Shown here piece after piece: positions 6,700-51,868 of a stretch of DNA of 64,000 bases. The notes below the pieces were generated by a model, which searched no databases, was not told the origin of the DNA, and was given only the letters and a program-made list of their open reading frames with translations. Source of the DNA: Polaromonas sp. (GTDB lineage Bacteria; Pseudomonadota; Gammaproteobacteria; Burkholderiales; Burkholderiaceae_C); assembly GCF_016185115.1 (NCBI RefSeq), contig NZ_JACPOF010000008.1, positions 124,001-188,000 on the forward strand, in the 5' to 3' direction. The position numbers were made by a program, and so were the translations under genes. How positions within the stretch are numbered: the stretch's first letter is position 1; each line of letters opens with the position of its first letter.

Positions 6700-8340
6700 A
6701 TGGTGAAACACACCCCGACCAACCCGGATTCTCACGGGCATCCTGAACCCGCTACAGAACCGGTCGAAAAGAATCGGCACGAAACTGAAAACCGTGCGTC
6801 GCGCGCGCTCGTGCCGCTGGTCTGCGCTGCGCTGGTGATTTTTCCCTGGATCAACCCATTTGCGCCTGGCCCATCGCCAGCGGTCGTCCCGCTGCTGCTG
6901 TCTGCGCTGTGCGCTGCAATCCTGCTGGGAATGTCCGCCTGCTGGCCGGCCCTGTTCAAGGTCGAACGCCTGGTCTGGCCTGTCGCATCGGCATGGCTCT
7001 TTGCCGGGCTTGTCAGTTCCGTGCTGGGGTTGATTCAGTACTTTGGCGCTGCAGACGGCTTGTTGCCATGGGTGAACCAGTCCAGATATGGCGAGGCGTT
7101 TGCCAATCTGCGCCAGCGCAACCAGTTTGCCTCGCTGACAAATATCGCGATGATTGCGCTCGTCTGGTTTGGCGTCATGTTTTCACGCAGCAAGCATGTG
7201 CTGGATGCCCGCAGGACCAGAAACTACCAAATCCTGATGGTGATGGCGGCGGCCCTCCTGGCCTGCGGTAACGCCACCTCTGTTTCCCGCACCGGCATGA
7301 TCCAGCTGGGCCTGCTCTGCGGCCTCTGTGTTCTATGGGGGCAGTGGCGACATGCCAGCGTGCGCTGGATTCTTCTGGCCGCAGTCGTCGTTTATGCCGT
7401 GTCGGTTCTGGCATTGCCGCGGCTGGCAGGGTTCGACCTGTTGCAGTACAGCATGTCGGGGCGCCTGCGTGCTGGTGACCCGGTTTGTGCAAGCCGCCTG
7501 ACCCTGTGGTCCAACGTACTTCATCTCGTCGCCATGAAGCCCTGGCTGGGGTGGGGCTGGGGTGAGCTTGATTTTGCCCATTACACCGAGCTTTATCAGG
7601 GCCCGCGTTTTTGCGACATCCTGGACAACGCGCACAACTTCCCGCTGCATCTCGCCGTAGAGCGCGGGGTGCCGTTTGCATTGCTGGTGTGTGGTGCTTT
7701 TGCATTGTGGATATGGCGCAGGAAACCGTGGCTGGACACCGATCCGGCAAGGCAAATGGCCTGGAGTGTGCTCGCCATCCTGCTGTTTCACAGCATGCTG
7801 GAATATCCGCTCTGGTATGGGCCGTTCCAGATGGCGGTGGTGTTGTGCCTGCTCTTCGTTCGTAAACCGCTGGCTATCTCACAGGAGGGGCAACCGGGTC
7901 GGTCGTTCACTGGCGTTGCGGCACGCGCGGGATGTGCTGCGTTGTCTGTACTGTTATTGCTCGGTACCTTCTATGCCATGTGGGACTACAGGCGGGTCAG
8001 CCAGATCTACCTCGCGGCCGACATGCGCGACCCCGCCTACCGGACGGACACCCTGGAGAAAATCAGCGATTCCTGGCTGTTCAGTGACCAGGTGATGTTT
8101 GCGCGTCTGCTGGTCACGCCGCTGACCCAGGCCAATGCGGCCTGGACTTTCAGTACTGCACAGGCGCTGCTGCACTATTCACCGGAACCCAGGGTGGCTG
8201 AAAAACTTATTGAGAGTGCGGTCATGCTGGGAAGGGATGAAGAGGCGCAGGCCCACATGCTGCGTTACCGGGTGGCATTTCCCAAGGAATACGCGCTCTG
8301 GAAACCGCTCAAGGCGAACCAGGAGTTGCAGGCGCAATAA
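6700..8340 (+). CDS. PglL/Wzy_C-family O-oligosaccharyltransferase or O-antigen ligase (second copy)
   Basis: A 546-residue polytopic membrane protein of the same family as the preceding gene, 22 bases downstream. It shares the diagnostic blocks [13 protein letters not shown] (~130), SVSRTGM (~197), [15 protein letters not shown] (~308) and EYPLWYGP (~367). The N-terminus carries a ~35-residue hydrophilic extension before the first membrane segment. The tail differs from that of the first copy, so the pair is divergent rather than a recent duplication. It may be a second ligase with different glycan or acceptor specificity. No clear ribosome site is seen before the ATG at 6700. Its last 32 bases overlap the convergent moaC gene. 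Confidence 0.8.
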
Positions 8341-47478: not shown

Positions 47479-47964
47479 TCACTTCAGGCGCGCTGACAGG
47501 TGCGCCAGCGGCAGCGCGCTGCTGGCCTTGACCTCGCCCAGCGAGAAGCTGGTGTGTATGTCTTTCACATTCGGCATGTTGATCAGCCGATGCAGCGCAA
47601 ACTTGCTGAAGGCTTCGAGGTCTTCGGCCATCACCTGCAGCTCGAACGTGCCGTTGCCGCTGATGTAATGGCAGGAGACGATCTCGGGCAGCTTCTTGAT
47701 TGCGTCCTCCAGCTGGCGCGTGGCGTCGCCAGTGGTGCGCTCGGTGTCCAGCCGCACAAAGGCCAGAACGCCCAGGCCTATCTTGTGGCGGTTGATTTCG
47801 GCCCGGTAGCCGGTGATGTAGCCGGCTTCTTCCAGCGCGCGCACCCGCCGCCAGCACGGCGCCGCCGACAGGCCGACGCGTGAGGCCAGCTCGGCATTGG
47901 TGAGCCGCGCGTCGGTCTGCAGGTTTTGCAGGATGGCGATGTCAAACTTGTCCAGTGTTTCCAT
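47479..47964 (-). CDS. Lrp/AsnC-family transcriptional regulator
   Basis: A 161-residue regulator of the feast/famine family. The N-terminal helix-turn-helix is in DKFDIAILQNLQTDARLTN and ELASRVGLSAAPCWRRVRALEE; the C-terminal RAM ligand-binding domain includes VRLDTER, ISGNGTFELQVMAEDL and the end VKDIHTSFSLGEVKASSALP. It is divergently transcribed from the indolepyruvate oxidoreductase gene and its leader ORF. Lrp-type regulators commonly control a divergent amino-acid catabolic gene in response to the amino acid, so control of this enzyme by an aromatic amino acid is the natural inference. Confidence 0.93.
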   Translation of the reverse strand: METLDKFDIAILQNLQTDARLTNAELASRVGLSAAPCWRRVRALEEAGYITGYRAEINRHKIGLGVLAFVRLDTERTTGDATRQLEDAIKKLPEIVSCHYISGNGTFELQVMAEDLEAFSKFALHRLINMPNVKDIHTSFSLGEVKASSALPLAHLSARLK

Positions 47965-48134
47965 AAATGACTATTAAACGAAAGAATCTTGCGCATGATA
48001 GCCAAATCGGGGCAAAGAACGCAATGACTTATCTGCTCATTCTGCATACACTTTGCGCTAGAGATTCACGATTTTTGGCCTCTGGAAATCAGTGAAACCG
48101 CCCCACCCCCGCACGTCCGACCCGGAGACAAACG

Positions 48135-48293
48135 ATGAACGCGCCGCTACCTGAACACATTCGCAAGGCCCTCGAGATGGTCATGCTGGACGAAAAGTCG
48201 CGAAGCGGCTTTTACCAAAGGTACAAGTATTCAGGCGGCGCGGCCGACTGTGTATTTGGCGTCGAGCATGTCAAAACGAAAGCTGCAGCATGA
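48135..48293 (+). CDS. 52-codon upstream ORF copying the oxidoreductase N-terminus
   Basis: ATG at 48135 follows a good GGAGA site at 48124-48128. The first 21 residues (MNAPLPEHIRKALEMVMLDE plus Lys) match the first 21 of the downstream enzyme at 18 positions. Nine of the 18 shared residues use a different synonymous codon, so protein sequence rather than DNA has been kept. The remaining 31 residues are unrelated to the enzyme and include a run of aromatic residues FYQRYKY. Its TGA overlaps the enzyme's ATG in ATGA, so translation is likely coupled. It may be a regulatory leader peptide, or a remnant of a tandem or paralogous copy. Confidence 0.7.
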   Translation: MNAPLPEHIRKALEMVMLDEKSRSGFYQRYKYSGGAADCVFGVEHVKTKAAA

Positions 48294-51200
48294 ACGCCCC
48301 ACTGCCGGAACACATCCGCAAGGCTTTAGAGACAGTCACGCTCGACGACAAATACAGCCTCAACTATGGCCACGCCTTCATGAGCGGTGTCCAGGCGCTG
48401 GTCAAGCTGCCCATGCTGCAGCAGCTGCGCGACAAACAGCAGGGCAAGAACACGGCGGGTTTTATTTCCGGTTACCGCGGCTCACCGCTTGGCAACTACG
48501 ACCAGGCGCTGTGGAAAGCCGCCAAATACCTGAAGGCGCAAAACATCGTCTTTCAGCCCGGCGTCAATGAAGAGCTGGCTGCCACCGCCGTCTGGGGCAC
48601 CCAGCAACTGGGCTTTGCACCGCCCGGCACCAACAAGTTTGATGGCGTCTTCGGCATCTGGTACGGCAAGGGCCCGGGTGTTGACCGCACATCCGACGTC
48701 TTCAAGCACGCCAACATGGCTGGCACCACGCCCTGGGGCGGCGCGATTGCGATTGCCGGTGACGACCACATCTCCAAAAGCTCGACCGCCGCGCACCAGA
48801 GCGACCACATCTTCAAGGCCTGCGGCCTGCCGGTTTTCTTTCCCGCCACGGTGCAGGAAATTCTCGACCTCGGCCTGCACGCGATAGCGCTGAGCCGTTA
48901 CGCCGGTGTCTGGGCAGGTGTCAAAACCATCCAGGAAATCGTCGAGTCATCGGCCAGCGCCATGATCGACCCCGAGCGTGTGCAGATCAAGATCCCGACC
49001 GATTTTGAAATGCCGCCAGGCGGCGTGCACATCCGCTGGCCCGATGCGCCGCTGGACCAGGAAAAACGCCTCTTCGACTACAAGTGGTACGCCGCGCTGG
49101 CATACATACGCGCCAACCGCCTGAACTACAACGCGATAGAAGGCCCGAATGACAGATTCGGCATCATCGCCAGCGGCAAGGCCTACAACGACACCCGCCA
49201 GGCCCTCATGGATCTTGGCCTGGACGACGCGACCTGCCGCCAGCTGGGCATACGCCTGCACAAGGTGGGCGTGGTCTGGCCGCTGGAGGCACAACTCACG
49301 CGCGAGTTCGCCACCGGCCTGCAGGAAATCCTGGTGGTCGAAGAAAAACGCCAAGTCATTGAATATCAGCTGAAAGAAGAGCTCTACAACTGGCGGGCCG
49401 ACGTGCGGCCCAACATCGTCGGCAAGTTTGATGACTCCGGCGACCACCAGGGTGGCGAGTGGAGCATGCCCAACCCGTCGGCCAATACGCTGCTGCGCGC
49501 CAATGCCGATCTGTCGCCGGCCCTGATTGCCAAGGCGCTGGCCGCGCGCGTGAAAAAGCTCAAGCTTGACGGCGACATGCTGGCGCGCATTGATGCACGC
49601 CTGGCCGTGATCGAGGCCAAGGAGAGGTCGCTGACCACGGTGGTCGTCGACAGTGAACGCACGCCCTGGTTCTGTTCGGGCTGCCCGCACAACACCTCGA
49701 CCAAGGTGCCCGAAGGCTCACGCGCGATGGCCGGCATAGGCTGCCACTACATGGCGCTGTGGATGGACCGCAGCACGCTGGGCTTCACGCAGATGGGCGG
49801 CGAGGGCGTGCCATGGGTTGGCCAGCAGCCCTTCACGACCGACAAGCACATGTTCACCAACCTCGGTGACGGCACCTACTTCCACAGCGGGCTGCTGGCG
49901 ATACGCCAGAGCATTGCGGCGGGTGTGAACATCACCTACAAAATCCTCTACAACGACGCGGTCGCCATGACGGGCGGGCAGCAGGTTGGCGAGCGGCCCG
50001 AAGGACACTCGGTGGTGCAGATATCGCACTCGGTGAAAGCTGAGGGCGCCAAAAAGATCGTTGTGGTCACCGACGAGCCTGAAAAGTACGACGGGGTGAA
50101 ACTCGCCGACGGGGTGACGGTGCACCACCGCGATGAACTCGATGCGATACAGCGCGAGTTCCGCGAGATCGAAGGCACCACCATCATTATTTACGACCAG
50201 ACCTGTGCGACGGAGAAGCGCCGCCGGCGCAAGCGCGGCACCATGGTCGATCCGGCCGCGCGTGTCGTCATCAACGAGCTGGTGTGCGAGGGTTGCGGCG
50301 ACTGCAGCGTGCAGTCCAACTGCATGAGCGTCGAACCTCTGGAGACCGAATTCGGCCGCAAGCGCCAGATCAACCAGAGCACCTGCAACAAGGACTTCTC
50401 GTGTGTGAAGGGCTTTTGCCCGAGCTTCGTCACGGTCGAAGGCGGCCAGCTCAAGAAGAAGTCGAAGACCGACAAAAAATTCAACCCGTTCGAAGGCGGT
50501 GAGATTCCAGAACCCGTGCTTCCCGTACTGGGCGCCGATCACCCGCTGTGGGGCATCGTCGTGGCCGGCGTGGGCGGCACTGGTGTGATCACCATAGGCC
50601 AGCTGCTGGGCATGGCTGCGCACATTGAAGGCAAGGGCATCATCACGCAGGATGCGGCGGGCCTGGCGCAAAAGGGCGGCAGCACCTGGAGCCATGTGCT
50701 CATCAGCGATCGGCCCGACGGCATCTGTACCACGCGTGTCGGCACGGCCAGCGCCGACCTCATCATCGGCTGCGACCCCATAGTCACCGCCAACAAGGAA
50801 ACCATGGCCCGCATGCGCGAGGGCCGCACGCATGTGGCGCTGAATTCGCACAGCGCACCGACAGCGTCATTCGTGCACAACGGCGGTTGGGTCAACCCCG
50901 GCAGCGCCTGCCAGGCCGAGATCAGCAAGGCCGTGGGCGCGGGTGGTGTGGGCGCGTTTGATGCCGACACAGCTGCAACCAAACTGATGGGCGACAGCAT
51001 TTATGCCAACCCCATGCTGCTGGGCTACGCCTGGCAAAAGGGCTGGATTCCTCTCGGGCTGGAAGCGCTGAGCCGTGCGATAGAACTCAACGCCGTGGCC
51101 ATCGAGCAAAACAAGATGGCTTTTGCCTGGGGCCGCCGTGCCGCGCATGACCTGGCTTCGGTTGAGCGCCTCTATGCATCCGCACAGGTCATTGCCATGC

Positions 51201-51868
51201 CGGCTGCACGCCAGGGGCTGGACGAACTGGTGGCGAAGCGTGTGGAATTTTTGACGGCGTATCAGGACGCTGCCTACGCACAGGCCTATGAACAATTCGT
51301 GCGGCGTGTAGAGCAGGCTGAAGCGCCGCTGGGCAAAAAACTGCTGGCGCAAAATGTTGCGAAGTACCTGTTCAAGCTGATGGCGTACAAGGACGAGTAC
51401 GAGGTTGCGCGCCTGCACACCGACCCCACCTTCCTGAACAAGGTCAATGCCATGTTTGAGGGTGACTTCAAACTGAATTACCACCTCGCACCGCCCATCA
51501 TCGCGAAGCAGAACGACAAGGGTGAATTGCAGAAGCAGAAGTTCGGCCCGTGGATGCTGACCGGGTTCAGGGTGCTGGCAAAACTCAAGGGGTTGCGCGG
51601 CACGGCTTTCGATATCTTCGGCAGGACCGAAGAACGCAAGACCGAACGCGCGCTGATTGAAGAGTACAAGACCAGCATCGAGAGCCTGCTGCCGGCGCTC
51701 AGTGAAGCCAACCATGCGACGGCGCTGGAGATTGCGCGCATCCCCGAACTTATCAAGGGTTATGGCCATGTGAAGGCGCGCAACCTGAAGACTGCGCGCC
51801 TGCAGTGGGCGGGCCTGATGCACGACTTCCGCAACGGCGGGGCCGCTGCGGAAAAGCTGGCGGCCTAG
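48290..51868 (+). CDS. Fused indolepyruvate ferredoxin oxidoreductase (IorA-IorB type)
   Basis: Oxidative decarboxylation of aryl-2-oxo acids, such as indole-, phenyl- or hydroxyphenylpyruvate, to acyl-CoA with electrons passed to ferredoxin. The 1192-residue protein joins the alpha and beta parts. The start has GFISGYRGSPLGNYDQAL (~62), typical of the oxidoreductase alpha domain. TPP-binding residues lie around the GIGCHYMALWMDRST region (~480). A ferredoxin-type cluster is in ELVCEGCGDCSVQSNC and CNKDFSCVKGFC (~665-705), and the beta domain begins with GVGGTGVITIGQLLG (~760). The function fits catabolism of aromatic amino acids via transamination. Its own start at 48290 has a weak ribosome site and depends on the upstream ORF. 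It overlaps the convergent dprA gene by 4 bases. Confidence 0.93.
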   Translation: MNAPLPEHIRKALETVTLDDKYSLNYGHAFMSGVQALVKLPMLQQLRDKQQGKNTAGFISGYRGSPLGNYDQALWKAAKYLKAQNIVFQPGVNEELAATAVWGTQQLGFAPPGTNKFDGVFGIWYGKGPGVDRTSDVFKHANMAGTTPWGGAIAIAGDDHISKSSTAAHQSDHIFKACGLPVFFPATVQEILDLGLHAIALSRYAGVWAGVKTIQEIVESSASAMIDPERVQIKIPTDFEMPPGGVHIRWPDAPLDQEKRLFDYKWYAALAYIRANRLNYNAIEGPNDRFGIIASGKAYNDTRQALMDLGLDDATCRQLGIRLHKVGVVWPLEAQLTREFATGLQEILVVEEKRQVIEYQLKEELYNWRADVRPNIVGKFDDSGDHQGGEWSMPNPSANTLLRANADLSPALIAKALAARVKKLKLDGDMLARIDARLAVIEAKERSLTTVVVDSERTPWFCSGCPHNTSTKVPEGSRAMAGIGCHYMALWMDRSTLGFTQMGGEGVPWVGQQPFTTDKHMFTNLGDGTYFHSGLLAIRQSIAAGVNITYKILYNDAVAMTGGQQVGERPEGHSVVQISHSVKAEGAKKIVVVTDEPEKYDGVKLADGVTVHHRDELDAIQREFREIEGTTIIIYDQTCATEKRRRRKRGTMVDPAARVVINELVCEGCGDCSVQSNCMSVEPLETEFGRKRQINQSTCNKDFSCVKGFCPSFVTVEGGQLKKKSKTDKKFNPFEGGEIPEPVLPVLGADHPLWGIVVAGVGGTGVITIGQLLGMAAHIEGKGIITQDAAGLAQKGGSTWSHVLISDRPDGICTTRVGTASADLIIGCDPIVTANKETMARMREGRTHVALNSHSAPTASFVHNGGWVNPGSACQAEISKAVGAGGVGAFDADTAATKLMGDSIYANPMLLGYAWQKGWIPLGLEALSRAIELNAVAIEQNKMAFAWGRRAAHDLASVERLYASAQVIAMPAARQGLDELVAKRVEFLTAYQDAAYAQAYEQFVRRVEQAEAPLGKKLLAQNVAKYLFKLMAYKDEYEVARLHTDPTFLNKVNAMFEGDFKLNYHLAPPIIAKQNDKGELQKQKFGPWMLTGFRVLAKLKGLRGTAFDIFGRTEERKTERALIEEYKTSIESLLPALSEANHATALEIARIPELIKGYGHVKARNLKTARLQWAGLMHDFRNGGAAAEKLAA

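What the first reader, a model, noticed from the sequence alone, without database searches (positions are those of the whole stretch)
48135..48293. Upstream ORF that duplicates the N-terminus of the enzyme it precedes, with translational coupling
Seen: 18 of 21 residues identical to the start of the indolepyruvate oxidoreductase, nine of those with different synonymous codons, a good ribosome site, an unrelated 31-residue tail containing FYQRYKY, and an ATGA overlap with the enzyme start, whose own ribosome site is weak. Inference A: a leader peptide whose aromatic-rich segment senses Phe/Tyr charging and controls the aromatic 2-oxo-acid enzyme. Inference B: a remnant of a lost paralogous copy that still provides translation initiation.
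Basis: partly seen in the sequence, partly recalled or inferred. Interest (0 to 1): 0.8.

Follow-up and report, generated by a model that had tools for sequence, protein, structure and literature searches.

The report
Duplicated-start leader before an oxidoreductase gene
The short reading frame is the enzyme gene's original start, separated from the gene by an inserted, folded RNA segment and a second copy of that start, so the enzyme is probably made by ribosomes handed on from the short frame; the arrangement recurs in related bacteria and looks like a little-seen way to control a gene.

Summary
In 14 of 14 aligned relatives without the short ORF, the same 5'UTR and GGAGAC ribosome site lead straight into the enzyme. 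Here that original start opens a 52-codon leader: after codon ~20 comes a ~90-nt insert, then a second copy of the gene's first ~62 nt, which starts the enzyme. I found the unit in 24 distinct loci (26 units; two loci have two in tandem), each before the start of the same gene. The leader stop lies within -4..+1 nt of the next start in 25 of 26 units, +17 in one. The insert shows a conserved sense-strand RNA fold. One arm complements enzyme codons 17-22, which lose synonymous variation only where the unit is present. Aromatic codons are not conserved, so amino-acid sensing is unsupported; a paralogue remnant is wrong, but "still provides initiation" is probably right. Best reading: a translational-coupling leader born by start duplication and lost by recombination between its repeats. 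Folding does not show that leader translation opens the enzyme start, and in this genome that start is not buried. Function is inferred; nothing was measured.

The parts
48124..48127 (+). Ribosome site (GGAG) of the ancestral 5'UTR, now serving the short ORF
   Evidence: 14 of 14 aligned same-genus loci without the unit (of 25 fetched) have GGAGAC directly before the enzyme ATG
48135..48197 (+). Copy 1: original first 21 codons of the enzyme gene, now the start of the leader ORF
   Evidence: pN/pS 0.22 over 26 units
48135..48293 (+). Leader ORF, 52 codons; stop overlaps the enzyme start as ATGA
   Evidence: overlap or near-overlap kept in relatives
48185..48200 (+). A1: arm in copy 1, possible partner of A2; on average weaker and more variable than A3
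48194..48212 (+). Hairpin I of the insert
   Evidence: 98.6% of cells paired, 6 of 8 pairs with two-sided changes
48224..48258 (+). Hairpin II of the insert
   Evidence: helices 3 and 4 (83.0% and 96.1% paired)
48252..48267 (+). A2: strongly conserved arm GTATTTGGCGTCGAGC, inverse complement of A3 with one mismatch
48290..51868 (+). Indolepyruvate ferredoxin oxidoreductase family protein, 1192 aa, starting at copy 2 of the gene start
   Evidence: NCBIfam NF009588, 1851 bits over residues 1-1189
48340..48355 (+). A3: enzyme codons 17-22 (GCTCGACGACAAATAC), nucleotide-constrained in loci with the unit
47479..47964 (-). Divergent Lrp/AsnC-type regulator gene (context, not part of the unit)

Best explanation
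A cis-acting translational-coupling leader made by duplication of the gene's own start. SHOWN by sequence: a ~155-nt unit (first ~62 nt of the enzyme gene plus a ~90-nt structured insert) lies between the ancestral ribosome site and the enzyme; the leader frame is open and ends within -4..+1 nt of the next start in 25 of 26 units (+17 in one); the insert folds as sense-strand RNA; arm A2 in the leader is complementary to enzyme codons 17-22 (A3), and both are conserved at nucleotide level. INFERRED: ribosomes initiate at the ancestral site (copy 1), translate the ~50-residue leader, whose residues after codon ~21 hardly matter, pass through the insert fold and A2, stop at the overlap and reinitiate on the enzyme. 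Enzyme output is thus set by leader translation, with direct initiation limited: in most relatives because the enzyme start is costly to open, in this genome because it lacks a Shine-Dalgarno. The ~62-nt direct repeats let recombination homogenise the copies, add units (two in two loci) or delete the unit.
For: Same 5'UTR leads directly into the enzyme in 14 of 14 aligned same-genus loci without the unit; filled/empty pair in Variovorax, L108 vs L045, 97% identical over 150 nt upstream. Leader stop: ATGA/GTGA 17, TGATG 6, TGA ending 1 nt before the start 2, +17 in one, of 26 units. RNA fold: 92.0% of cells paired vs 86.8 shuffled; 14 of 30 pairs with two-sided changes vs 5.1, 0/500 shuffles; sliding partners drops pairing to 32-37%. 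Sense-strand sign: 39 G-T vs 3 A-C cells. Codons 17-22 have the lowest synonymous diversity of 343 six-codon windows in 21 positive loci (0.048, vs 0.397 in 40 negative) and the largest difference of all windows; exact A3 in 18 of 21 positive vs 13 of 43 negative. A2:A3 duplex stronger than A2:A1 in 20 of 23, mean -18.6 vs -13.9 kcal/mol. Opening cost of the enzyme start 13.2 vs 6.5 kcal/mol in negative loci (7.1 at the leader start), equal context, n=23 and 43. Overlapping stop/start pairs and pairing of the downstream initiation region with the upstream ORF are established bases of coupling (PMC6728339, abstract and passages seen).
Against: No expression data. In this genome the numbers run the other way: the enzyme start costs 6.7 and the leader start 13.2 kcal/mol to open; the enzyme start is the costlier one in 20 of 23 loci, not in the window, L099 or L107. 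Melting A2 lowers the enzyme cost only from 13.0 to 12.1 on average, and clearing the leader through A2 only to 12.4, so the folds do not show that leader translation opens the start; the burial comes mainly from the 15 nt before it. In the window's fold A2 prefers A1 (0.57) to A3 (0.01) while the leader is whole; A2-A3 is also at most 0.10 in L106, L113 and L117. A2-A3 shows two wobble pairs in 23 loci, stricter than an RNA helix needs, and one change that looks compensatory (L109); a DNA-level role is not excluded. With wobble allowed, negative loci's A3 pairs the consensus A2 nearly as well (14.3 vs 14.9 of 16). The phylogenetic pair test for A3 has a median p of 0.06. Most relatives with the unit have a good Shine-Dalgarno at the enzyme, so direct initiation may occur.
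Confidence: 0.5

Rival explanations
1. Functionally near-neutral relic: a rearrangement inserted a palindromic segment and duplicated the start; coupling merely keeps the enzyme expressed, and the fold persists through hairpin-templated mutation and gene conversion, with precise loss by recombination over time.
For: Patchy: 5 of 87 genomes of the genus by protein search and 5 of 399 of the family draw by RNA model, own genome included in both; 11 state changes on the enzyme tree, at least 8 forced. Copies tend to be alike within genomes (own identity 0.843 vs 0.766 between, 0/5000 permutations). In 3 of 12 listed pairs the gene without the unit reads copy 1 then copy 2 with one switch, as deletion between the repeats would leave. 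Folding does not show an opening effect of the leader.
Against: Template correction should be strand-symmetric, yet G-T far exceeds A-C cells. It does not explain the loss of synonymous variation at codons 17-22 where the unit is present or the kept stop/start overlap.
Confidence: 0.22
2. A2 and A3 are a pair of inverted DNA sites flanking the enzyme start, bound by a protein (for example the divergent Lrp/AsnC regulator) or used by a recombinase, and the leader is secondary.
For: A2 and A3 are conserved at near-exact letters with almost no wobble; a divergent Lrp/AsnC gene lies alongside.
Against: An exact 15-nt pattern of the site occurs at no other place in 9 positive genomes except one match inside a dehydrogenase-like coding sequence, so no regulon is seen. 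The pair keeps a mismatch in most loci. The rest of the insert shows sense-strand RNA constraint. No inverted allele was seen in the 24 loci.
Confidence: 0.13
3. Amino-acid-sensing leader peptide: stalling at Phe/Tyr codons controls the enzyme.
For: The window's tail has FYQRYKY, and enzymes of this family are known for aromatic 2-oxo acids (recalled).
Against: Aromatic residues are not conserved; tail pN/pS 0.76; no sense-strand terminator-like site in 47900-48500.
Confidence: 0.03

Closest known systems
Translationally coupled overlapping gene pairs (ATGA/TGATG; termination-reinitiation or upstream-translation-dependent initiation; PMC6728339, abstract and passages seen)
   Same: Stop/start overlap; a segment of the upstream ORF complementary to the start of the downstream gene; an established ribosome site upstream
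   Different: The upstream ORF is not an independent gene but a duplicate of the downstream gene's own start, and it hosts a conserved multi-hairpin RNA
Long-range RNA pairing over an initiation region, as in E. coli gnd and the IF3-L35-L20 operon (seen only as reference titles in PMC6728339; rest recalled)
   Same: A coding segment pairs with sequence around a start
   Different: Here both arms derive from one gene segment, direct in the enzyme and inverted in the leader
Leader-peptide attenuators (trp, phe, erm type; recalled)
   Same: Short ORF with hairpins before the gene
   Different: No conserved control codons, no sense-strand terminator-like site found in the window region; leader stop at the gene start
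Tandem inversion duplications (search listing only; otherwise recalled)
   Same: Direct copy, inverted segment (A2), direct copy: could be the birth event
   Different: Retained with compensatory changes across genera

Membership tests
Translationally coupled gene pair | Upstream stop overlaps or nearly abuts the downstream start | tested here: met
   25 of 26 units within -4..+1 nt, one at +17
Translationally coupled gene pair | Downstream start poorly usable without upstream translation | tested here: inconclusive
   Predicted opening cost 13.2 vs 6.5 kcal/mol in loci without the unit, but 6.7 in the window, and clearing the leader lowers the mean only to 12.4 from 13.0; the window's enzyme lacks a Shine-Dalgarno (-0.1), most relatives do not
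Translationally coupled gene pair | Downstream expression depends on upstream translation | not testable with these tools
   needs reporters or ribosome profiling
Amino-acid attenuator leader | Conserved run of control codons | tested here: not met
   1-5 aromatic residues in tails of 29-39; FYQRYKY only in the window of 26 units
Amino-acid attenuator leader | Intrinsic terminator on the sense strand | tested here: not met
   none on + in 47900-48500, two on the other strand; only the window was scanned
Remnant of a paralogous gene | Homology beyond the start region, or a second gene copy | tested here: not met
   one enzyme gene found in the genome, 96% complete; the leader has no Pfam or NCBIfam match
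Dispersed repeat / mobile element | Several copies per genome or other sites | tested here: not met
   One match at E <= 2.5e-30 in each of the 9 positive genomes, next best 0.0064; the two best weak matches were read and look like ordinary sequence unrelated to the unit; one unit (L108) had no match in plasmids or phages
Known Rfam family | Match at gathering score | tested here: not met
   window 47900-48500: one match at E 2.3, far below its gathering score, on the other strand in the enzyme; none in 5 of the positive loci

The most novel reading that the evidence does not exclude
A start-relay cassette: an RNA element that displaces a gene from its ribosome site, carries a copy of the gene's own start, and makes enzyme output depend on translating the displaced start, with a switch in which arm A2 pairs either with copy 1 (A1) or with the gene (A3). 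Because it is bounded by its own direct repeats it can be multiplied or cleanly lost, a heritable dial on one enzyme across a bacterial order.
Probability: 0.22. Interest if true: 0.75.

Novelty: new variant of a known kind. Interest (0 to 1): 0.6.

Why it matters
It shows a leader ORF arising from the gene it precedes: partial duplication of a start turns the original start into a short upstream ORF. If the coupling is real, it is a simple route by which bacteria invent translational control, and close pairs with and without the unit (for example L108 and L045) are natural alleles to test it. It also warns that an upstream ORF matching an N-terminus need not be a pseudogene or a sensor peptide. 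No description of it turned up in the literature searches made (an open-access library only, listings read).

Tried and rejected
Amino-acid attenuation, paralogue remnant, dispersed repeat, known Rfam RNA, operator regulon. DNA cruciform or pure template correction as sole cause: disfavoured by 39 G-T against 3 A-C cells (helices 2 and 4 alone: 10 against 1). Programmed bypassing from copy 1 to copy 2: considered, not tested, not needed, since the enzyme copy keeps its own start and mostly its own Shine-Dalgarno next to the leader stop. Recurrent birth in each lineage: judged unlikely because hairpins I and II are shared; I made no search for their source in the gene. The idea that A2 melting opens the enzyme start was tested and is not borne out by the folds. 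The two best weak model matches, L080 and L081, were read; the other weak matches were not. The order-level draw gave only the own genome, 1 of 399. One search holds one row (L007) on the wrong strand and is not used.

Full report
What was checked. The 52-codon ORF at 48135-48293 exists as described: 18 of 21 residues match the enzyme's start, nine with other codons, a 31-residue tail, and an ATGA overlap. The enzyme at 48290 is an indolepyruvate ferredoxin oxidoreductase family protein matched over residues 1-1189 (NF009588), with no second copy found in the genome. A divergent Lrp/AsnC-type gene lies upstream.

What it is. In 14 of 14 aligned same-genus loci without the ORF (of 25 fetched), the same upstream region and GGAGAC site lead directly to the enzyme ATG. 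So the short ORF sits at the ancestral start, and the enzyme starts from a second copy of the first ~62 nt that follows a ~90-nt insert. A close filled/empty pair in Variovorax (L108 with, L045 without the unit) is 97% identical over 150 nt upstream, and the gap is one unit long.

Where it occurs. Protein searches found tail-bearing homologues in 4 other genomes of the genus (87 searched, own included) and in 4 of other genera (399 searched, own included; its list of matches was cut, but the RNA model gave the same set on that draw). A DNA pattern search of named genomes gave 21 loci, by record title: Polaromonas 3, Comamonas 3, Acidovorax 2, Paracidovorax 2, Variovorax 2, Rhodoferax 2, Rubrivivax, Roseateles and Giesbergeria 1 each, three MAGs called Burkholderiales bacterium, and one MAG titled Bordetella parapertussis. 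The pattern required A2 and the gene's first codons, so divergent units would be missed. The three Polaromonas records equal same-genus hits in contig length, so the window's genus is probably Polaromonas. After dropping six duplicates, 24 distinct loci remain. The RNA model, built from nine of these, finds one strong match in each of the nine genomes and nothing else below E 0.006; it matches 5 of 399 family genomes and 1 of 399 in the order draw, the own. L104 and L111 carry two tandem units.

Translation signs. In 17 of 26 units the leader stop overlaps the next start as ATGA/GTGA, in 6 as TGATG, in 2 it ends 1 nt before it, and in one it lies 17 nt inside. Unit lengths vary (149-163 nt) yet the relation holds. 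The units are related, so these are not 26 independent cases. The other two forward frames of the tail are also often open. Copy 1 has pN/pS 0.22, the tail 0.76: the peptide after codon ~21 matters little. Copy 1 is on average closer to its own enzyme copy than to others' (0.843 vs 0.766; 0 of 5000 permutations), but the own copy ranks first in only 10 of 24 loci and 11th in the window, so homogenisation is uneven; the low pN/pS of copy 1 may partly reflect the enzyme's constraint.

RNA signs. On 26 aligned inserts a four-helix fold, which I drew from single-sequence folds, an alignment fold and the alignment itself, pairs 92.0% of cells, with two-sided changes at 14 of 30 pairs (5.1 in shuffles; 0 of 500). 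Single folds beat their shuffles by z of 4 in two of nine loci and by under 2 in five of nine. Related sequences can exceed column shuffles without structure, as the tool warns; the slid control (32-37% paired) and the strand sign (39 G-T vs 3 A-C cells; 10 vs 1 in helices 2 and 4) point the same way. Part of the G-T excess in helices 1 and 3 could come from their nearly invariant 3' arm.

The long-range arm. A2 (48252-48267) is the inverse complement, with one mismatch, of enzyme codons 17-22 (A3, 48340-48355). In 21 loci with the unit these codons are the least variable synonymous stretch of 343 windows (0.048) and differ most from 40 loci without it (0.397), while codons 2-16 vary about as much in both sets. 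The search pattern did not require A3. Exact A3: 18 of 21 vs 13 of 43; on independent tree pairs 5.8 agree and 0.2 disagree, median p 0.06. Negative loci were those returned as best matches, not a random draw. A2:A3 is the stronger duplex in 20 of 23 and has mean pairing 0.76 in whole-leader folds, but 0.10 or less in four of 23, the window (0.01) included; there A2:A1 prevails (0.57) until the leader before A2 is removed.

Mechanism. Over 23 loci the enzyme start is costly to open (13.2 vs 6.5 kcal/mol in 43 loci without the unit) although its Shine-Dalgarno is on average stronger than that of the leader (-9.6 vs -6.6). In the window the reverse holds: enzyme start 6.7, leader start 13.2, and almost no Shine-Dalgarno at the enzyme. 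The high cost stems mainly from the 15 nt before the start (8.9 with a generic spacer; 12.8 with the stretch further upstream shuffled), not from A2 (12.1 with A2 melted, 12.4 with the leader cleared, against 13.0). So the folds favour delivery of terminating ribosomes at the overlap over opening of a closed site. I hold coupling of the enzyme to leader translation as most likely, with A2-A3 as a conserved accessory whose part is open. The low tolerance for wobble in A2-A3 (two in 23) remains unexplained.

History. The enzyme tree needs 11 changes of state (8 forced); insert and enzyme distances correlate (Mantel r 0.50, n=21, 0 of 10000), so the unit is probably old and partly vertical. In 3 of 12 listed pairs the gene without the unit reads as copy 1 on the 5' side and copy 2 on the 3' side with one switch, as deletion between the repeats would leave; the other nine are mixed or uniform. 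Loss by recombination is my preferred cause of the patchiness; gain by transfer is not excluded.

Novelty. Overlapping coupled genes with paired initiation regions are known (PMC6728339, abstract and passages seen). I found no account of a leader ORF made from the gene's own duplicated start with a conserved RNA fold, nor an Rfam family.

Noticed in passing
L007, L109, L113, L117, window 48177-48289: The inserts of the five same-genus loci form one clade (99/97), yet the enzyme tree splits this genus over two well-supported clades (L113 absent there), which hints that enzyme body and leader have been reshuffled.
   Followed up: partly
L104 (start codons at 6947, 7102, 7257 on the gene strand) and L111 (568, 720, 872): Two tandem leader units before one enzyme; in L111 the second copy of the start reads the same as the enzyme's over its first codons, as recent unequal recombination would give.
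   Followed up: partly
window 48252-48267 with 48340-48355: A2 and A3 show almost no wobble pairs and keep a mismatch in most loci; neither a plain RNA helix nor template correction explains both.
   Followed up: partly
L114: A 6.9-kb MAG contig titled Bordetella parapertussis carries a unit closest to that of an unnamed Burkholderiales MAG (L107); the title may be a binning or naming error.
   Followed up: no
L112: In this MAG locus the enzyme frame behind the unit stops at codon 70, a real break or an assembly error.
   Followed up: no
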